From positions 1 through 54,855 of the forward strand of contig NZ_JADEWT010000032.1 in NCBI RefSeq assembly GCF_015207505.1: a DNA stretch of 54,855 bases, in the 5' to 3' direction. This DNA comes from Tychonema sp. LEGE 06208 (lineage in GTDB: Bacteria > Cyanobacteriota > Cyanobacteriia > Cyanobacteriales > Microcoleaceae). Positions 5,975 through 24,238 of this stretch are shown here, in pieces. Position 1 is the stretch's first letter, and every line of letters begins with the position of its first letter. The position numbers and the translations under genes are program-made. The notes beneath the pieces are model-generated. The model was not told where the DNA came from, ran no database searches, and was given only the letters and a program-made list of their open reading frames with translations.

Positions 5975-6033
5975 AAATTAAGCAGTTGTGTCATCAGTAT
6001 GGACTGATCATCCCGTGCATACCGGAATTGATC

Positions 6034-6279
6034 TTATGCCCCTTTTGATGACGTTACAGACTGTACAATTGGCTGGGAGGGGGAATGTTGAATCAGTCGC
6101 ATCAATAGGCGCAACCCTTCATTAACTGCGCCAGAATCTGGAAAAATTGTTGCAACATCAGGATCTAGTTGGACTGTTAGGGTGGATTGTTTGCGTCCTT
6201 GACCGCGGGCTACAACAGAGAGTTGAGTAAAGTCATATTCGGGGCGCAAATCATCATCCATTTCAGAGGTCTGACTCAT
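6034..6279 (-). CDS. BrnA-like antitoxin
   Basis: An 81-residue protein beginning MSQTSEMDDDLRPEYDF, with a central VQLDPDVATIFPDSGAVNEGLRLLMRL segment that resembles the ribbon-helix-helix end of BrnA antitoxins. It overlaps the upstream BrnT-like toxin gene by 17 bp, a typical arrangement for this module. It should bind the toxin and repress their shared promoter. Identification rests mainly on the partner and the DLRPEYDF start. Confidence 0.82.
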   Translation of the reverse strand: MSQTSEMDDDLRPEYDFTQLSVVARGQGRKQSTLTVQLDPDVATIFPDSGAVNEGLRLLMRLIQHSPSQPIVQSVTSSKGA

Positions 6280-6538
6280 AAGCTTTACGTTCTTTGCGGG
6301 TAACGGGACGAGCGCTGATTAGGCGCGTGATGCCTGCACGGTCAGTGTAAGCGACAACTAACAATCGTCCTTTGGCTGATTCTCCCATGATAATGAAACG
6401 TTGCTCTTGAAAGGAGTGTTCTGGATCACCAAAGGTTAAAAATAACGGATCGTCAAACACAGAAGTGGCTTCATCGAAAGAAACACTATGCTTAGCAAGG
6501 TTGCTTCTGGCTTTTTCCTCGTCCCAATCAAACAACAT
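6263..6538 (-). CDS. brnT: BrnT-like ribonuclease toxin
   Basis: A 91-residue DUF497 (BrnT) protein. The family pattern is clear: FDWDEEKARSNLAKHSVSF at the start, FDDPLFL in the middle, then LLVVAYTDR, RLISARPVTRKERKAYE at the end. BrnT toxins have a RelE-like fold and cleave RNA, arresting translation. It is first in the two-gene unit, toxin before antitoxin, as in other brnTA operons. Length is normal. Confidence 0.9.
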   Translation of the reverse strand: MLFDWDEEKARSNLAKHSVSFDEATSVFDDPLFLTFGDPEHSFQEQRFIIMGESAKGRLLVVAYTDRAGITRLISARPVTRKERKAYESDL

Positions 6539-7047
6539 GGGTTCAATTTACAACGTCTGCTTTTTCAGATTATACCAGCATATGTGTCGTCCGACTGCAT
6601 AAACTACGCCATGCTTCAGCCTTACTGACCAAACGGGGAGAGCGCACTATGCCCGAAAGGCGATTAACTGCGTCTTCCAAAACTCAAAGAATAACAAAAT
6701 CCCGATCGCCCTGCCGGTGAGAAAAAGTGACAGGCTTTTGTAAAGGTTTGTAAATTGGTAAATTGTTGAGCTAGGGGAAAGAGCGATCGCACTTGCAACC
6801 TTCATTTCCTGTTATTTGGTGAGGAGATGAAGAAGTGACGAGGTGCGATCGCTACTCTAATAACTAGCAGTTTGGCTTACCACTAACTTCTCGGCGGTCG
6901 GTGTGCATGGGCATTGTTAGGCCGCGATGACTAATGCTGCAAGAACTCATAAACACGGCGCATTCTTAGGAATCGAACAATAGATTAGGACGATTTGTAT
7001 TCGGGAATGCCCCCAATAGCAATGGCGACCACTGTTGCCAGAGCTAG
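6539..7047. other. Gene-poor spacer between brnTA and the cell-wall gene set
   Basis: About 500 bp without a credible reading frame. It contains the first copy of the dispersed 60-70 bp repeat (6681-6745) and a pair of HIP1 sites near 6783 and 6847. A GTTAGGC heptamer near 6917 recalls an integron attC end but has no matching partner. Confidence 0.6.
6681..6745 (+). repeat. Dispersed conserved repeat, copy A
   Basis: Shares, with copies at 10041-10103 and 10152-10216, an opening AACTCAAAGAATAA, the block CCCGATCGCCCTGCC, then GGTGAGAAAAAGTGACA and a TTTTGTA end. AAAAG and CTTTT can pair around TGACAGG, giving a small hairpin. All three copies have the same orientation, and they lie on both sides of the 7.0-9.7 kb peptidoglycan gene set. 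Confidence 0.85.
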
Positions 7048-7668
7048 CTAAGAAAAGCCATCTATAGGCGATTTCATTAATCGCTTAATAGTTTTAGAAT
7101 TTTCCCAATCCGTACCTAGCGAACCATCAACATCAAGTGGATCTCCCGGATTATGCTTATTCCAGAGGCTTTGGAAGGCTTTAATTCCTAAACTGCGAAG
7201 ATCGGTCCCTCCCGCAACAAAATCATAATGAGGAGGATCGACAGGTCCAAAATGTCTCCATCCTTGATCTTCGAGGAAAGGTTTCCAAGTCAAGGGTTCA
7301 TTTATGTCTAACGCTAGGCCACTTTCATGGTTGCTGGTTCCGGGTCGAGCAACAGGATTAGGATTGCACCCACCGAGATGCTTCAGGCGGAACAGTAGGA
7401 ACTGTTGGGCAAAAGTTCGATACCCAGAATTAATGCTAAGTGTTATGCCGCGCTTATCGATCGCTGCTTTCAATTTTGCTTTAGCGGTAGGTCCCCCTAC
7501 AAAAGGAACTGCCGCCGCCGCCCTACTGAGAGACACATTGAGATCGTCAATTCTTATGAGTTTACCGGGAGCAACTACATCGAACTCCGCCAGAATCTGA
7601 TCATTGAGACCCTTAATGATTGGGGTAGAGGGACAAAGACGAAGATTAATTTCTTTGAACAATACCAT
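7048..7668 (-). CDS. M15 family D-Ala-D-Ala carboxypeptidase/endopeptidase
   Basis: A 206-residue zinc peptidase with the M15 pattern: SGYRTFAQQ (81-89), SNHESGLALDI with zinc ligands His114 and Asp121, and PHYDF with His147. It should cut the peptide part of peptidoglycan. Residues 160-206 (IKAFQSLWNKHNPGD..DGSLG) resemble a peptidoglycan-binding repeat. There is no signal peptide, although the substrate is outside the cytoplasm. It is the last of four same-strand genes for peptidoglycan-acting proteins; the gap to the preceding gene is about 42 bp. Confidence 0.85.
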   Translation of the reverse strand: MVLFKEINLRLCPSTPIIKGLNDQILAEFDVVAPGKLIRIDDLNVSLSRAAAAVPFVGGPTAKAKLKAAIDKRGITLSINSGYRTFAQQFLLFRLKHLGGCNPNPVARPGTSNHESGLALDINEPLTWKPFLEDQGWRHFGPVDPPHYDFVAGGTDLRSLGIKAFQSLWNKHNPGDPLDVDGSLGTDWENSKTIKRLMKSPIDGFS

Positions 7669-7710
7669 GATATTTACTCACAAAAAATAATGATTTTGGT
7701 TTTTTAGAAC

Positions 7711-7962
7711 TTACTCAGGATCTCGTTCAATCTTTAGCAAGCCCAAAGATTCTAAGACGAAAACACCTGCTACACCATCAGGTGCAAATCCCTGACTGTC
7801 TTCAAAATCGATCACTGCTTGTTCGACTTCTTGACCAAAAAGACCATCAATTTGTCCACTATAAAAGTCAAGTTCTTGTAACTTCTGTTGTAGCTTTTCT
7901 ACATCTGTACCCGTACAGCCTACGTATAAGTTAGGCATCAATTCATTCATTGAATTTGACAT
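7711..7962 (-). CDS. Small peptidoglycan-binding domain protein
   Basis: An 83-residue protein that is almost only one PG_binding_1 domain: VEKLQQKLQELDFYSGQIDG followed by LFGQEVEQAVIDFEDSQGF and DGVAGVFVLESLGL. The frame is open further upstream, but GAGGAA seven bases before the ATG at 7962 and the start MSNSMNEL fix this start. There is no catalytic domain and no signal peptide. It may target or tether its neighbours (lysozyme, M15 peptidase) to the wall. Confidence 0.8.
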   Translation of the reverse strand: MSNSMNELMPNLYVGCTGTDVEKLQQKLQELDFYSGQIDGLFGQEVEQAVIDFEDSQGFAPDGVAGVFVLESLGLLKIERDPE

Positions 7963-7997
7963 GGTTTTGTTCCTCAATTTGATATACCTATACAGTA

Positions 7998-8843
7998 TTA
8001 ATTCCACCCGGCAAACTTCTGAAACCAACCTGCTCGATCTAATACGTCTTTACCGTAATCACCTCCTGCCGTGACCGAATCAACATCAATTCCTCGATCG
8101 AGAGCACGTAAAACGGCTCCAAGTCCGGCATTATAGCTGGCGAGAGTTGCCTTCAGTAGCTGCCTTCCAGTCAACCCTTCACGTTTTTGAACAGCCCTAT
8201 TATCAGCGAGAAGATCGCAACCATAACGAATATTGGCTCTCGGGTCTTTCCAGTTACCAGTTCTAGCGAAATCATGAGCACCATCATCAATTTGCATCAG
8301 CCCACGACCATGCCCAGCATCCCCTGTACCTGCTGCTCCTGGTGGGCTAAGAATTATCCCCCAAAGGGATTCACGCGATCCCACACCGCCAATTACCGAA
8401 GGTTGAATGTCAAAGTCTTCAGCCGCTTCCATGATTAAGGTTTCATAACCACGGCTTCTAATCTCATCAAGTTGAGAGATAATTTCACCTTTGGCATAAG
8501 ATGTTGTGAAAACAAGTCCATCAGGCATCGTAAGTACGTCATAGTAGACATTTGCAGTTTCCTTGCCAATCACACCTCTTAAACTACCGTGATTACCCCC
8601 TGGTAGATGAATGTCCTTAAAGCGGATTACACCTTCATTAGATAGATCCAGTCGCTTTTTTTCAGCAAGGTCAAGAAATTTGAAGAGTGTATCTGCATCA
8701 AGCAAGTCTGAGGAGCCACTAATTTTCAAAAAGTCTTTCTTGAGCTTGCTAAAGCGTTCTATAGGCAAGTTAGTCATGATTGCAAGCGCATTTCTTTGTT
8801 CTTCACTTAGCCCATCACCGATTCCTTCAATTCGTATTGACAT
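7998..8843 (-). CDS. Goose-type lysozyme-like muramidase (GH23)
   Basis: A 281-residue protein whose C-terminal half is a lysozyme-like domain: SRESLWG with probable catalytic Glu158, HGRGLMQIDDGAHDFA (178-193), NWKDPRANIRYGCDLL, and ASYNAGLGAV (235-244). The GLMQID and SYNAG motifs fit g-type lysozymes and lytic transglycosylases. The first 130 residues are not recognised. There is no signal peptide, which is odd for an enzyme acting on glycan strands. It stands between the amidase gene and the small binding-domain gene on the same strand. Confidence 0.82.
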   Translation of the reverse strand: MSIRIEGIGDGLSEEQRNALAIMTNLPIERFSKLKKDFLKISGSSDLLDADTLFKFLDLAEKKRLDLSNEGVIRFKDIHLPGGNHGSLRGVIGKETANVYYDVLTMPDGLVFTTSYAKGEIISQLDEIRSRGYETLIMEAAEDFDIQPSVIGGVGSRESLWGIILSPPGAAGTGDAGHGRGLMQIDDGAHDFARTGNWKDPRANIRYGCDLLADNRAVQKREGLTGRQLLKATLASYNAGLGAVLRALDRGIDVDSVTAGGDYGKDVLDRAGWFQKFAGWN

Positions 8844-8906
8844 ACATTTTCCTCAATTTTGAGACTACTGATTCATATTCACTAGAAGCATTTATTTTAC
8901 ATAGCC

Positions 8907-9737
8907 TTACAGCCGTGCTTTAACGGCTTGTCGAAGGTCTTTTAGCCGAGCTTCTCCCATGCCTGGACAAATTGTATCGACTCGATCGCGGTGTCCAATA
9001 ATACGGGGAAGACTCTTAGGGGAAGGTTCTCTATCCTTATCAATTGGTGTAGAGACTAAAGTCGTTGGATCAGTAATCCCAATTTTTTTACATAGCTGGG
9101 TACACAATGCAACGGTAGAGTCAAATTGCTCATCTGTGATATTGCTTCCCGACAGATGGAAAGACCCTTCCATTGCAATTCCAAAACCATCATTAAATAC
9201 ATCATGTGCACCTTTTTTGCTGTTGGGACGGCCTTCATAGATACGACCACTAGGCATGATCACATAATGATAGCCAATGTCACTAAAGTTTTGGGGAGAC
9301 TTCATTTCTGATGCTTGAATATCTCTCATTCTTTGTTCTTCAGTGGCTTGACTCGCTGTAACAAACAAAGTTGGAAAGACAGTATGATGTATGGTGATAC
9401 GTTTCGGACTAGGAAGATCAGCTAAGGAATTGTTCGGTGGTTTTGCTCCCCAAACCCTTCGAGAAATGATTTTTATCTCGCCGCTTTCCAGACGAAGCGT
9501 AATTTCTGCGCGATCCTGATCCGACGCAATGACCTCAATCTTGCGATCGCCTGTTTGATTAAAAATCAAGGTAATTTCCCATTTACCTCCTTGGACGCGA
9601 GGACGTGCCACTTCAAATTTGTCATCAACTAAGATTAACAACTCATCTCCGTCGTCTACGTTAGTAGTAGTTCCCTTTAAAACAAAGGGTTCGGATGTGT
9701 TGGCTTTTGGGGGAAACTCAGTAATTCTTACAGACAT
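8907..9737 (-). CDS. PGRP/Amidase_2-type N-acetylmuramoyl-L-alanine amidase
   Basis: A 276-residue protein with two parts. Residues 1-90 look like a beta-rich, Ig-like domain (repeated ELLILVDDKFEVARP and WEITLIFN strands). Residues 92-276 are a PGRP/amidase domain: RRVWGAKPP, ITIHHTV with zinc ligand His117, GYHYVI with Tyr156, GHRDRVDTICPG with His249 and Cys257. The cysteine ligand indicates a catalytically competent amidase, not a sensor. No signal peptide is present. It is the first gene of the four-gene set. Confidence 0.87.
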   Translation of the reverse strand: MSVRITEFPPKANTSEPFVLKGTTTNVDDGDELLILVDDKFEVARPRVQGGKWEITLIFNQTGDRKIEVIASDQDRAEITLRLESGEIKIISRRVWGAKPPNNSLADLPSPKRITIHHTVFPTLFVTASQATEEQRMRDIQASEMKSPQNFSDIGYHYVIMPSGRIYEGRPNSKKGAHDVFNDGFGIAMEGSFHLSGSNITDEQFDSTVALCTQLCKKIGITDPTTLVSTPIDKDREPSPKSLPRIIGHRDRVDTICPGMGEARLKDLRQAVKARL

Positions 9738-10040
9738 AATAAACTCCTGTGAACTTATAGCAGGTCGAACAGTTGATGTTTAAAATCAGCCCTACTCTCA
9801 ACTCATAAAGATGTTTGAAGGTAAAGAAAGTATGCTTTCTTATAAATTAGAGCTTGAGTAACCGATTTCAATCTAAGTTAATCATGATTTCAGAACTATG
9901 GGTCACAAGTTACGCCCAAACAGATGCTCAAGCGGTCTAACTTATAATTGCGTCGCAGATGCAGTAAAAGACTCTTCCTAGTCGGTTTATTCCGCACACC
10001 AGCGGTTTATTGAACAGTCTTAACAACTTGTTCTCTGACG

Positions 10041-10103
10041 TAACTTAAAGAATAAACTACCCCGATCGCCCTGCCGGTGAGAAAAAGTGACAAGCTTTTG
10101 TAC
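10041..10103 (+). repeat. Dispersed conserved repeat, copy B
   Basis: Same order of blocks as copy A (AACTTAAAGAATAA, CCCGATCGCCCTGCC, GGTGAGAAAAAGTGACA, CTTTTGTA). The central block of 33 bases is identical to copies A and C. The spacing to copy C is only about 48 bp. Confidence 0.85.
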
Positions 10104-10151
10104 GGCTGAAATCATCAGTTTTGAATAGCCGGAACACCTTCTGATCTGCCT

Positions 10152-10216
10152 TAACTCAAAGAATAAACCCCCCCGATCGCCCTGCCGGTGAGAAAAAGTG
10201 ACATGGTTTTGTAAAC
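10152..10216 (+). repeat. Dispersed conserved repeat, copy C
   Basis: Third copy, with AACTCAAAGAATAA, the invariant central block, and a GTAAA end followed by GTAAATTCC, which also partly matches the tail of copy A. The sequence just before it (GGAACACCTTCTGATCTGCC) is not shared with the other copies. Confidence 0.85.
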
Positions 10217-10474
10217 TTACGTAAATTCCTCGATCGATAATCGATTTTAGATTTGAGATTGTGGAATTAACCTCCTCCCAAGTCCGGCTTAAATATCCCT
10301 CTTACTTCTTAGTCCGCATTGGCGGACTTTGTTTGTGTAAACCTGGTTTCAACCGCCGAATATAAAAGGGACTACGTTGCGGTTAATTAAGTAAATTTGT
10401 TTTCTATCCTGAAAAGCAACCCCCACTCAGAATAATCGGTAAATCTACTGAATTAATCAATCAAAATAACAACT

Positions 10475-11785
10475 ATGACAGCAGAAGAAGCGATCGCCCT
10501 AATCGACCATCTGTTACACGCGAACAACCAGCAAAAACTCACTGACTTTCAATCCTGCGTCTTTCTGGGAACTTGGGAAGGACATTCTTATCAAGAAATA
10601 GCCGATCGCTTAGCCCATCGCTTACTTTATTACGAACACGATTATATCAAACACGTCGGTTCGCATTTGTGGCGAAATCTCTCTCAAATCATCGGCGAAA
10701 AAGTCTCAAAGCAAAATCTGCAAGCAGTCTTGCGCCGCTACCAGCATGGCCGCGCATCAGATAACTGCATCCAAGACTGGGGAGAAGCGATCGATGTTTC
10801 CGAATTTTACAATCGGCAACAGGAACTCGAAACATTAGAAACTTGGATTAGCGGCAATTCTACTCGTCTGATCGGTATTTTTGGACTTGGCGGTATCGGC
10901 AAAACTTCTCTGTCTGTAAAACTCGCTCAGCAAATTCAATCTCAGTTTGAATTCGCGATTTGGCGGAGTTTGCAGCAAGCACCAACCTTAGATGTTATCC
11001 TCAGCAATATTTTGCCGATTTTAACTAATTCAGAACACACAAACAATCACTCTATTGATGCTCTCATGGAACAGTTGCGGCAAAAACGCTGTTTGTTAAT
11101 TTTCGACAATTTGGAGTCGATTTTGCAAGGTGGAAATCGCAGCGGACAATATCAACAAGGCTATGAAGATTACCGACAGTTGTTGGCGCGCATTGCTGAC
11201 GAACCCCACCGAAGTTGTCTGATTTTAACCGGAAGAGAACAACCGGGCGGGTTTGCTGTGCGATCGGGCGAAAATTTACCCGTGCGATCGCTCAAACTCT
11301 TCGGAGTTTCACCGCCAGTATGCCAGCAAATCCTCGCGGCTAAAGGATTAAAGGCAACGCTATTGCAGTGTCAAGATATTGTCAACTACTTTGGCGGCAA
11401 TCCCCTCGCCCTCAAACTTGCTGCAACAACTATTAAAACACTTTTTGGCGGTGATATTCACGCATTTTTAGTGCAAGGAAATACTGTTTTTAGCGATTTG
11501 TGGGATTTGCTCGATCGCCAGTTCGATCGCTTGTCTCCCCTGCAACAAAAAATTATGTACTGGATCGCCATTAATCAAGAAGGAGCGACCCCTGCAAAGT
11601 TAAAAACGGAAATTTTGCCCAAAGTTTCGGGAAGGCACCTGATGGAAGCATTGGAGGCGCTAGCTGAACGATCGCTCATCGAAGATCGGCGATCGCTCAA
11701 TGATACCGCATCAACAAGTTTAATGCTACAACCGGCGATCGTCGAGTATGTCAGAGAATGCTTGCTCCAAACTGCTGAGCAATAA
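10475..11785 (+). CDS. STAND-type NB-ARC ATPase with N-terminal HTH-like domain, no sensor repeats
   Basis: A 436-residue signal-transduction ATPase. Residues 1-90 match the helical HTH-like domain that begins many cyanobacterial NB-ARC and vWA-MoxR-associated proteins (SYQEIADRL...VGSHLWRNLS). The NB-ARC core follows: FYNRQQELETLETW, Walker A GLGGIGKTS (137-145), Walker B CLLIFDNLE (206-214) and the GNPLALKL motif. Most relatives continue into WD40 or TPR sensor repeats; this one stops after the winged-helix part. It faces the peptidoglycan gene set divergently. A paralogue is at 22835. The role is unknown; regulator or defence switch are both possible. Confidence 0.85.
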   Translation: MTAEEAIALIDHLLHANNQQKLTDFQSCVFLGTWEGHSYQEIADRLAHRLLYYEHDYIKHVGSHLWRNLSQIIGEKVSKQNLQAVLRRYQHGRASDNCIQDWGEAIDVSEFYNRQQELETLETWISGNSTRLIGIFGLGGIGKTSLSVKLAQQIQSQFEFAIWRSLQQAPTLDVILSNILPILTNSEHTNNHSIDALMEQLRQKRCLLIFDNLESILQGGNRSGQYQQGYEDYRQLLARIADEPHRSCLILTGREQPGGFAVRSGENLPVRSLKLFGVSPPVCQQILAAKGLKATLLQCQDIVNYFGGNPLALKLAATTIKTLFGGDIHAFLVQGNTVFSDLWDLLDRQFDRLSPLQQKIMYWIAINQEGATPAKLKTEILPKVSGRHLMEALEALAERSLIEDRRSLNDTASTSLMLQPAIVEYVRECLLQTAEQ

Positions 11786-11828
11786 ACGATCGCAAACAAA
11801 CTTACAGCATATTCCAGGTTTATGGAGT

Positions 11829-11857
11829 GTAGGGACACGGCAATGCCGTGTCCCTAC
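11829..11857. repeat. GTAGGGACACGGC palindrome
   Basis: GTAGGGACACGGC and its reverse complement flank a short loop, giving a hairpin just downstream of the NB-ARC gene. A related sequence forms the tandem array at 52241-52335, and a looser relative lies near 108-135. It may double as a terminator. Confidence 0.7.
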
Positions 11858-11988
11858 GGGAATCGAACGATAGGCGGGTGTACTTCATAAACATAGAATC
11901 TGCTGTAACTTTACGAAAATACTGCGTTTTGGCCCGCAGATTCGGTATAAAAACCCGGTTTCTTGGTCGGATTGCGATCGCGAACTGA

Positions 11989-22834: not shown

Positions 22835-24238
22835 ATGGATATTGAAGATGCCTTAAAATTTACTGACAATCTAGCTTTAACTACTACGGGAAAACACTTA
22901 GATAGCCTGCAAAAAGCTATACTGCGCGGCGCTTGGAACAATCAAAAATATAAAGAAATTGCACAGGAACACCACCGTTCAGAAAAATATGTTAAAGAGG
23001 TTGGCTTCAAATTGTGGAAACTTCTATCAGTTGCATTAGGCGAGGAACAAGTATGTAAAGCAAATTTTAGAGCAAAGCTGGAAAATTTACGAGTTGGCAA
23101 TATCTCGCTTTTTGGCAATGGCTGTATTCATATTGGTAACATCTCTGCTGATAGTTCGCAATCCTCAAAAAAATTACAATCTGAACCTCAAGACAAGGAT
23201 AAGTTTAACGAACCAACAAGCAATACTAAACCAAAAGTTCGTCAAGACTTATCCGATGCACCAGAACCCAACCTATTCTATAACCGCACATCCGAACTTT
23301 CCACCCTCGAAAACTGGATTTTAGGCCGCACCCGTCTCATCACCATATACGGCTTATCCGGTATTGGCAAAACCGCCCTAACACTCCAACTAATCCCACA
23401 AATTCAACACGAATTCGATCGCATAATCTGGCGAAGTCTCCGCGACGCGCCACCGCTGGCTTCACTCCAAACCGACTTAATTAAATTCTGTAGGGGCGGT
23501 GCCCCCGTGCCCGCGCCCTATCCCGAAGAAATGGCAACCACAGGGAGATTGCCCCTACTAGAATATCTACGATCGCACCGCTGTCTCCTAATCCTCGATG
23601 ATATCCAAACCATCTTCAGCAGCCAACAACTCGCAGGAAATTACCAACCAGGCTATGAAAATTACGGCCCATTCTTCAAACAAATAGCAGAATCATCCCA
23701 CAACAGTTGTTTAATCCTCCTGAGTTGGGAAAAACCCAGAGAAATCGCCGCAGTAGAAGGTGAAAACCGCCCCTGCAAATCTCTGCAACTCAACGGTTTA
23801 GGCCCGGAAGCACAGGAAATATTCAGAGAAAAAGGATTAGCAGAACCGGAAAAATGGTCACAACTAATCGACCTTTACCGAGGTAATCCCTTATGGTTAA
23901 ATATAATTGCCACATTAATTCAAGACTTATTCGGCGGCAGCGTTTCCGAATTCCTCTCCTATGATACCCTATTTTTAGGAGACTTAGAATCACTATTGCA
24001 GCAGCAGTGCGATCGCCTAACCGCATCCGAACAACAAGTGATTTATTGGCTAGCAAGTGCGATCGAACCAGCAGACATCTCAAAAAAGCCAGACAACCTG
24101 CAACTATCACCGCCAGAACTCTTGAAAGTCATGCAATCTTTAGGACGACGGTCATTAGTTGAAACAGTCAAGCAAAACGGGCGATCGCACTTCACGATCG
24201 AACCAGCAATCAGAGAGTACATAACAAACAAGAAATGA
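22835..24238 (+). CDS. Second STAND-type NB-ARC ATPase, no sensor repeats
   Basis: A 467-residue paralogue of the protein at 10475. It has the same N-terminal HTH-like domain (KYKEIAQEHHRSEKYVKEVG), a variable linker, then NB-ARC: FYNRTSELSTLENW, Walker A GLSGIGKTA, Walker B CLLILDDIQ, GNPLWLN. It ends after the winged-helix part without WD40 or TPR repeats. A palindromic repeat (23490-23558) is embedded in frame just before Walker B, adding about eight residues to a loop relative to its paralogue. The stop overlaps the start of the exonuclease gene (ATGA), so the two are probably co-translated. Confidence 0.85.
   Translation: MDIEDALKFTDNLALTTTGKHLDSLQKAILRGAWNNQKYKEIAQEHHRSEKYVKEVGFKLWKLLSVALGEEQVCKANFRAKLENLRVGNISLFGNGCIHIGNISADSSQSSKKLQSEPQDKDKFNEPTSNTKPKVRQDLSDAPEPNLFYNRTSELSTLENWILGRTRLITIYGLSGIGKTALTLQLIPQIQHEFDRIIWRSLRDAPPLASLQTDLIKFCRGGAPVPAPYPEEMATTGRLPLLEYLRSHRCLLILDDIQTIFSSQQLAGNYQPGYENYGPFFKQIAESSHNSCLILLSWEKPREIAAVEGENRPCKSLQLNGLGPEAQEIFREKGLAEPEKWSQLIDLYRGNPLWLNIIATLIQDLFGGSVSEFLSYDTLFLGDLESLLQQQCDRLTASEQQVIYWLASAIEPADISKKPDNLQLSPPELLKVMQSLGRRSLVETVKQNGRSHFTIEPAIREYITNKK
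23490..23558. repeat. Palindromic element embedded in the NB-ARC coding sequence
   Basis: GTAGGGGCGGTGCCCCCGTG at the left end and GGGAGATTGCCCCTAC at the right end share inverted GTAGGGGC/GCCCCTAC termini. This is the layout of small GTAGGGGC..GCCCCTAC elements common between cyanobacterial genes. Here it is 69 bp, a multiple of three, and encodes RGGAPVPAPYPEEMATTGRL in frame. Confidence 0.8.

What the first reader, a model, noticed from the sequence alone, without database searches (positions are those of the whole stretch)
7048..10474. Four-gene set of peptidoglycan-acting proteins without signal peptides
An amidase (His117/His249/Cys257), a goose-type lysozyme (Glu158), a single-domain peptidoglycan-binding protein and an M15 peptidase (His114/Asp121/His147) lie on one strand. 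Together they could cut the glycan strand, the amide bond and the stem peptide. None has a visible export signal, and no holin, phage structural or secretion gene is adjacent. Such a set would suit a lytic payload delivered by a particle or released on cell death more than routine wall growth.
Basis: partly seen in the sequence, partly recalled or inferred. Interest (0 to 1): 0.8.

Follow-up and report, generated by a model that had tools for sequence, protein, structure and literature searches.

The report
NLR-linked swappable cell-lysis gene cassette
Four wall-cutting genes in a filamentous cyanobacterium form a swappable cassette beside an immune-receptor-like gene, and close relatives pair the same receptor gene with other, mostly wall-cutting, cargo, which suggests a controlled self-lysis or weapon system.

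Summary
In detail: four closely spaced minus-strand genes (gaps 63, 35, 42 bp) encode an Amidase_2, a goose-type lysozyme, a PG_binding_1 protein and an M15 peptidase, with catalytic residues conserved and no export signal seen.

The missed piece is the divergent gene 10475-11785, a 436-aa NB-ARC (NLR-like STAND) protein. In the genus, 15 of 29 genomes carry it at 81-100% identity. In 10 of 15 the divergent cargo includes peptidoglycan hydrolases, of differing families; others carry oxidases or peroxidases. A 31-bp element lies by the cargo units, on the cargo strand in 34 of 34 copies. In G206, at the same chromosomal site, the four genes are replaced by a C39 peptidase, a muramidase and a 2-TM protein; homology stops near the elements. 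Five of 15 loci encode small membrane proteins of two families, one matching phage holins. Elsewhere in cyanobacteria the same M15 family sits upstream of caspase genes (13 of 60 M15 genes, 0.09 expected).

Best reading: exchangeable lysis or weapon cargo tied to an NLR-like gene. The locus pattern is shown; triggering and function are inferred. Particle delivery is unsupported.

The parts
8907..9737 (-). Amidase_2 (PGRP/T7-lysozyme type) with Ig-like N-domain, 276 aa
   Evidence: Pfam 5.4e-17; PGRP-SD 2rkq E 3.8e-18; His117/His249/Cys257 invariant in 8
7998..8843 (-). goose-type lysozyme, 281 aa, with separate N-domain about 1-105
   Evidence: 1gbs E 1.7e-15 over residues 106-276; N-domain also on GH24 lysozymes
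7711..7962 (-). single PG_binding_1 protein, 83 aa from ATG 7962
   Evidence: Pfam 3.8e-14; start judged from the sequence
7048..7668 (-). M15 (VanY-like) peptidase, 206 aa
   Evidence: Pfam 1.9e-9; His114, Asp121, His147 conserved in 25
10475..11785 (+). divergent NB-ARC (STAND) protein, 436 aa, N-terminal helical domain with weak sigma-70 region 4 similarity
   Evidence: Pfam NB-ARC 3e-11; 14 orthologues of 81-96% in congeners; model and plant NLR matches
10173..10203 (-). 31-bp element, copy 1 (upstream of the amidase, in the divergent intergenic stretch)
   Evidence: exact match; 0 expected in shuffles
10062..10092 (-). 31-bp element, copy 2
6702..6732 (-). 31-bp element, copy 3 (downstream of the M15 gene, upstream of brnT), with an HLR1-like TTTACAAA-CC-TTTACAAA beside it
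6886..10136 (.). stretch exchanged for other cargo in congener G206
   Evidence: blastn window against L282: homology ends at 6885 and resumes at 10137 apart from short repeated patches
5975..11988 (.). whole island (BrnA-like ORF and BrnT toxin, four-gene set, NB-ARC)
   Evidence: flanking orthologues adjacent, 96-221 bp apart, in G153, G001, G166
6034..6538 (-). BrnT toxin gene (6263-6538) and a following 81-aa ORF in the antitoxin position, also in the island
   Evidence: BrnT_toxin 1.2e-27; the 81-aa ORF had no Pfam match

Best explanation
The four genes are the current cargo of an exchangeable cassette locus. A conserved NB-ARC (NLR-like STAND ATPase) gene keeps its place while the divergently transcribed cargo is swapped at a shared 31-bp-plus regulatory element; the cargo is most often a set of leaderless peptidoglycan hydrolases, in some congeners with small holin-like membrane proteins. 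Proposed working (inferred): the NB-ARC protein switches state with ATP on a stress or infection signal, and its N-terminal helix-turn-helix-like domain acts at the element to raise cargo expression. The enzymes build up in the cytoplasm and reach the wall once the inner membrane is breached (by a cassette holin where there is one, by a phage holin, or by other death effectors), so the cell lyses early and sheds the enzymes. Shown: orthology of the NB-ARC gene, element, divergent layout, cargo change at the same site, lack of signals. Inferred: regulation by the NB-ARC protein, trigger, timing, target (own wall or neighbours').
For: 15 of 29 congeners have the NB-ARC orthologue, with dN/dS 0.18-0.31 in seven pairs. 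Elements: 34 of 34 copies on the cargo strand in 15 loci, 0 in 9 non-orthologous NB-ARC loci; at up to 3 mismatches in 14 of 15 orthologue genomes and 3 of 46 other family genomes. PG hydrolases in 10 of 15 cargos. Cargo swap at the same site between this genome and G206; the C39-muramidase cargo occurs at two chromosomal sites, G206 and G216. 69 of 105 pairs share under 10% of the shorter cargo. Small membrane proteins in 5 of 15 loci, one family matching a holin profile at 8e-8. Same M15 family linked to caspase and STAND genes elsewhere. Sigma-70 region 4 plus NB-ARC proteins are described in cyanobacteria (PMC11119718, passages).
Against: No experiment or expression data. The window cassette has no intact holin. 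Across the order NB-ARC genes are not enriched beside M15 genes (3 of 306 near against 2 of 321 far), and no caspase lies beside the window set. Five of 15 cargos lack a firm PG hydrolase; several hold oxidases or peroxidases, so cargo is not only lysis. Ten of 40 element copies lie away from the NB-ARC gene, some in arrays with small, partly toxin-antitoxin-like genes, so the element may be only a dispersed repeat. The sigma region 4 match is below Pfam's cut-off (17.8 against 25.7 bits; 14.3 in the window protein). The NB-ARC protein has no visible sensor repeats.
Confidence: 0.42

Rival explanations
1. Antibacterial or anti-grazer weapons: the cargo (wall enzymes, LodA-like lysine oxidase, vanadium haloperoxidase, DyP peroxidases) is released by leaky or dying cells, or by an unknown export route, and harms other organisms; the NB-ARC gene times its production.
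For: Cargo in G210, G222, G212 and G213 is oxidative rather than lytic; exchangeable cargo fits arms races; no immunity gene would be needed for enzymes kept in the cytosol.
Against: No secretion gene beside the set; sheath genes are rare; holin-like genes in sister cassettes point to the own membrane.
Confidence: 0.25
2. The NB-ARC gene and cargo are neighbours only because both ride in a repeat-rich exchange hot spot; the repeat is a dispersed homology block and the cargo is miscellaneous accessory genes.
For: Satellite element arrays without the NB-ARC gene; BrnT toxin gene in the island; mixed cargo.
Against: Orthologue and element go together in 15 of 15 loci but 3 of 46 other family genomes; element always on the cargo strand; 10 of 15 cargos share one broad activity although their families differ.
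Confidence: 0.2
3. Payload of a contractile injection system or other particle.
For: Leaderless lytic enzymes, as in loaded effectors.
Against: No Phage_sheath_1 gene in this genome and in 13 of 15 orthologue genomes.
Confidence: 0.05
4. Remnant of a prophage lysis module.
For: GH24 and muramidase cargos of sister cassettes resemble phage endolysins, and one small protein matches a holin profile.
Against: The M15 protein has no match in 50,697 phage records; of 28 viral-contig relatives only 2 match over nearly the full length; the element has no exact match in viral contigs; no phage structural gene noted nearby (window read by ORFs, only part profiled).
Confidence: 0.05
5. Ordinary wall turnover enzymes reaching the periplasm by a route not recognised here.
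For: PG hydrolases are needed for growth (general knowledge).
Against: Patchy accessory distribution (g-lysozyme matched in 9 of 195, amidase 35 of 195, M15 51 of 195 genomes), island location, cargo exchange.
Confidence: 0.03

Closest known systems
Cyanobacterial sigma-70 region 4 / NB-ARC fusion proteins (PMC11119718, passages seen)
   Same: NB-ARC domain behind a weak sigma-70 region 4-like N-terminus, in cyanobacteria
   Different: The passages seen do not mention cargo, elements or wall hydrolases; the region 4 match here is below Pfam's cut-off
STAND/caspase conflict systems with variable effectors (Kaur 2020, PMC7159879, and 2021, PMC8195603; passages seen)
   Same: STAND or AP-ATPase hub, exchangeable effectors, preference for multicellular bacteria; one system has EAD1-fused lysozyme and papain-like peptidoglycan peptidase domains
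   Different: Here the cargo is separate leaderless genes beside a conserved NB-ARC gene with a shared DNA element; M15/VanY and amidase were not found in the terms searched in PMC7159879
LypABC, a CARD-NLR-like lysis system of Caulobacter (PMC13236601, passages seen)
   Same: NLR-like ATPase essential for controlled host lysis
   Different: No endolysin or holin was found there; lysis leaves ghost cells
Metacaspase / Amidase_2 fusions (PMC3501461, passages seen)
   Same: Cell-death protease joined to a wall amidase in bacteria
   Different: Single-protein fusions in four non-cyanobacterial genomes, not exchangeable operons
Phage holin-endolysin cassettes
   Same: Leaderless endolysins; a holin-like gene in some sister cassettes
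   Different: Chromosomal, beside an NB-ARC gene, no phage genes around

Membership tests
STAND/NLR-like NB-ARC protein | NB-ARC ATPase domain | tested here: met
   Pfam 3e-11; plant NLR structures top the fold search (model pLDDT 75.7, pTM 0.46)
STAND/NLR-like NB-ARC protein | C-terminal sensor repeats (LRR, WD40, TPR) | tested here: not met
   436 aa, none found by Pfam; the frame ends after the NB-ARC region
Sigma-70 region 4 / NB-ARC fusion | r4_2 domain above the curated cut-off | tested here: inconclusive
   14.3 bits and 17.8 bits in orthologue L248, cut-off 25.7
Holin-endolysin lysis cassette | leaderless endolysins | tested here: met
Holin-endolysin lysis cassette | holin in the same cassette | tested here: not met
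   none in the window cassette; present in some sister cassettes
Holin-endolysin lysis cassette | phage genes around | tested here: inconclusive
   neighbours profiled and orthologues at the site are chromosomal; the rest of the window was not profiled
Caspase-linked M15 operon of other cyanobacteria | caspase gene beside the M15 gene | tested here: not met
   window neighbours; one caspase match in the whole genome
Contractile injection system cargo | sheath gene in the genome | tested here: not met
   0 matches in G000
CARD-NLR / gasdermin defence | gasdermin or CARD partner | not tested
   no gasdermin search was made; PADLOC gave only a weak PDC-S27 match for the NB-ARC protein, 8.8e-4
Integron-like cassette array | integrase and attC-type sites | not tested
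   element arrays seen, no integrase search made

The most novel reading that the evidence does not exclude
A bacterial NLR-type STAND protein that works as a transcription switch for a plug-in socket: a shared promoter element lets whole lysis or weapon cassettes (endolysins, holins, oxidases) be exchanged by recombination while staying under one receptor's control, giving each lineage a different death or attack payload.
Probability: 0.33. Interest if true: 0.9.

Novelty: new variant of a known kind. Interest (0 to 1): 0.74.

Why it matters
How NLR-like proteins of bacteria kill the cell without a gasdermin or nuclease is open (LypABC is a case, PMC13236601, passages). A conserved NB-ARC gene tied to exchangeable wall hydrolases and holin-like proteins would give a direct, testable route from receptor to lysis. 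It would also show a receptor whose output, not its sensor, is the fast-changing part. The caspase-linked operons in other cyanobacteria make the role of orthocaspases in autolysis testable too.

Tried and rejected
Particle delivery: sheath genes are rare and absent here. Prophage lysis end: phage and viral collections do not hold the M15 family in force. A general link of NB-ARC genes with M15 genes across the order: not enriched (3 of 306 against 2 of 321); the link is specific to the orthologue group. HLR1 (RpaB site) as a fixed part of the element: only 6 of 46 copies match a strict consensus and 31 of 46 a loosened one that I wrote, so it is a lead only; the consensus is recalled, HLR1 itself is described in PMC6331805 (passages). 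attC-like boxes in the element: looked at by eye, nothing convincing. A holin remnant after the M15 gene (around 6990-7045): the three-frame reading shows a short hydrophobic stretch, but it was not matched to either small-protein family. The first-pass idea that PG_binding and M15 genes are a split fusion: relatives are M15-PGB fusions but the direction of change is unknown. The second structure job was not used; alignment A3 of the lysozymes led nowhere.

Rows dropped: the 60 M15 genes come from the loci fetched; several weak or stop-broken matches were left out, and one conventional signal-bearing M15 gene is among the 60. The expectation of 0.089 assumes one gene per 1150 bp and half on the same strand, uses one search counts that are capped at 13 scored candidates in some genomes, and ignores shared descent, so its Poisson P (3e-24) is only indicative. 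The control of 9 other NB-ARC loci used local profiles that do not cover muramidase, M74 or C39. One search kept the best 80 of 403 relatives. regions are rough and include some shared intergenic DNA.
Full report
Observation. The four genes are real and correctly placed on the minus strand: amidase 8907-9737, goose-type lysozyme 7998-8843, PG_binding_1 protein 7711-7962 (ATG start) and M15 peptidase 7048-7668, with gaps of 63, 35 and 42 bp and a plausible ribosome-binding sequence before each (by eye). Pfam and PDB matches agree, and the named catalytic residues are conserved. Together they would cut glycan, amide and stem-peptide bonds. NCBIfam gave no match for the lysozyme or amidase.

No export signal. 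A hydropathy screen finds no N-terminal hydrophobic segment in the four. Of 62 ORFs with an M15 domain in fetched loci, 55 are M15-PGB proteins and none has such a segment; two high values lie inside the M15 domain; three conventional M15 proteins do have one. In seven more remote M15 loci, six show an N-terminal membrane segment by eye and L151 does not. This is a screen, not a signal-peptide predictor.

Relatives and linkage. In 195 genomes of the order the g-lysozyme query matched 9, the amidase 35 (7 others with E of 1e-70 or better) and the M15 protein 51 (own genome included). The M15 family is usually fused to PG_binding_1. In G115 one 598-aa protein holds M15, PG_binding_1, Ig-like and amidase domains, that is three of the window's proteins in one. 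In several families the order is GH24-PGB, M15-PGB, caspase, caspase-like/nSTAND1/WD40 on one strand, for example L092, L105, L112 and L080. Of 60 M15 genes in 44 genomes, 13 have a same-strand caspase within three genes downstream, against 0.089 expected. In the same loci 20 of 306 genes near M15 are caspases against 0 of 321 further off, and 18 against 1 are other PG hydrolases; NB-ARC genes are not enriched, 3 against 2. Other loci pair or fuse M15-PGB with Amidase_3-glucosaminidase proteins. Named examples include Microcoleus vaginatus HSN003, Microseira wollei, Nodosilinea nodulosa and Moorena bouillonii; three Microcystis loci pair M15-PGB with a PGB-goose-type lysozyme, and the family also occurs in Myxococcota (best 80 of 403 kept).

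Island. In congeners G153, G001 and G166 the genes flanking the island (ABC ATPase and LarC) are neighbours, 155, 96 and 221 bp apart. So 5975-11988 is an insertion here. In G092 the same site holds another insertion with a different NB-ARC gene (30.6% identical) and an M15-PGB gene 121 bp behind it. In G033 the site is not informative.

The NB-ARC locus. The divergent gene 10475-11785 has 14 orthologues of 81-96% in the genus (15 of 29 genomes with its own; one is cut by a contig end), under purifying selection (dN/dS 0.18-0.31 in seven pairs). Three sit at the LarC site and ten show at least one flank of a second site; two could not be placed. Cargo on the divergent strand, by Pfam or local profile: G000 Amidase_2, g-lysozyme, PGB, M15; G001, G211 and G212 GH24; G153 M74-like, PGB, M15_4, g-lysozyme; G205 M74, DUF2272; G206 and G216 C39_2 and Muramidase; G219 Amidase_2, C39_2; G223 M15-PGB, PGB, Amidase_2-PGB, C39_2; G166 an unassigned protein and C39_2; G221 a PLAT protein at a contig end; G210 ferritin-like, LodA and FAD proteins, haloperoxidase; G222 haloperoxidase; G213 unassigned proteins and DyP peroxidase. 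G212 also has DyP peroxidase and SNase genes further on. So 10 of 15 have a firm PG hydrolase. Nine non-orthologous NB-ARC loci show none by the local profiles.

The element. TGTCACTTTTTCTCACCGGCAGGGCGATCGG occurs three times in this genome, all in the island. In the 15 loci 34 of 34 copies (up to 5 mismatches) lie on the cargo strand; the nine control loci have none. At up to 3 mismatches it is in 17 of 61 family genomes, all in this genus: 14 of 15 with the orthologue (the fifteenth, G219, has a 4-mismatch copy) and 3 of 46 without; the reversed pattern gives none. Ten of the 40 copies are elsewhere, some in same-direction arrays with small, partly toxin-antitoxin-like genes. Conservation extends beyond the 31 bp on both sides, with an HLR1-like stretch before it in part of the copies.

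Exchange. Window against G206: homology of 97% runs through brnT and the element at 6702 to 6885, is absent from 6886 to 10136 apart from short repeated patches, and resumes at 10137 (94%) through the element at 10173 and the NB-ARC gene. In between, G206 has a C39_2 protein, a muramidase and a stretch matching an 84-aa two-helix protein at 78%. The C39-muramidase pair is also in G216 at the second site. Of 105 locus pairs 69 share under 10% of the shorter cargo and 3 share half or more.

Membrane proteins. Two small families occur in 5 of 15 loci: an 84-aa protein with two hydrophobic stretches (G210, G223, G206) and a 78-79-aa protein (G001, G211, G210). The latter matches a PHROG holin family at 8e-8; the former has no holin match. 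A 155-aa protein with two hydrophobic stretches is in G001 and G216. The window cassette has none of these.

NB-ARC protein. The model (mean pLDDT 75.7, pTM 0.46) has an N-terminal bundle of helices, the ATPase and a C-terminal winged-helix-like part (last reading mine). Plant NLR structures rank first (E 2.8e-11, TM 0.44), a MalT complex is further down. Sigma-70 region 4 similarity is weak, but region 4/NB-ARC fusions are described in cyanobacteria (PMC11119718, passages).

Phage origin. The M15 protein has no match in 50,697 phage records; the amidase matches 39, none over 80% of its length; the lysozyme 2. Sister-cassette GH24 and muramidase proteins do resemble phage endolysins (1707 and 602 records, all under 60% identity), so some cargo is probably phage-derived.

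Reading. What is shown is a conserved NB-ARC gene with a DNA element and changing, mostly wall-cutting, leaderless cargo. That the NB-ARC protein controls it, and that the result is lysis, is inference. In passages seen, LypABC shows that an NLR-like ATPase can drive lysis (PMC13236601), and Kaur et al. point to peptidoglycan-attacking effectors in STAND systems (PMC7159879). In Moorena some M15 proteins carry a cytosolic-looking N-domain and one membrane helix before the M15 domain; that this N-domain is a conflict-system adaptor is recalled, not tested.

Print search. Ten searches of the held library showed no paper on an NB-ARC gene with exchangeable holin-endolysin cargo; the library lacks most subscription journals. 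The genus was not named by the tools; by size and neighbours I think it is Microcoleus (recall).

Noticed in passing
L092 1830-10549, L105 2140-10848, L112 1954-10999, L080 5496-14979: Operon-like order GH24-PGB, M15-PGB, caspase, caspase-like/nSTAND1/WD40 in several cyanobacterial families; a candidate caspase-linked autolysis module of its own.
   Followed up: partly
L087 9197-12928, L095 4882-8370, L102 4681-8559: M15-PGB followed by one protein joining a caspase domain to an alpha/beta-hydrolase (DUF7379-like) domain.
   Followed up: partly
L010 205-5547, L011 7547-13021: Giant (about 1800 aa) proteins with a subtilisin-like part and a goose-type lysozyme domain, next to genes that look like M50-peptidase or HlyD-type exporter genes (by eye).
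   Followed up: no
L305 7255-13907, L306 9371-10239: Arrays of the 31-bp element alternating with small same-direction genes, integron-like in layout; no integrase search was made.
   Followed up: partly
L170, L227, L229: Microcystis: M15-PGB next to, or overlapping, a PGB-goose-type lysozyme gene, the layout nearest to the window's lysozyme, PGB and M15 set.
   Followed up: partly
L115 9309-10790, L119 2123-3589, L167 521-1939: Moorena M15 proteins with an N-terminal domain and one membrane helix before the M15 domain.
   Followed up: partly
window 22835-24238: A second NB-ARC gene in the window (467 aa); its neighbours were not profiled.
   Followed up: no
L285 6964-12713: LodA-like lysine oxidase, FAD protein, ferritin-like protein and vanadium haloperoxidase as cargo beside the NB-ARC orthologue in G210.
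   Followed up: partly
L128, L130, L133, L137, L139: In another family the M15-PGB gene recurs next to a 676-aa gene; in L128 it is arginine decarboxylase, probably shared ancestry rather than function.
   Followed up: no
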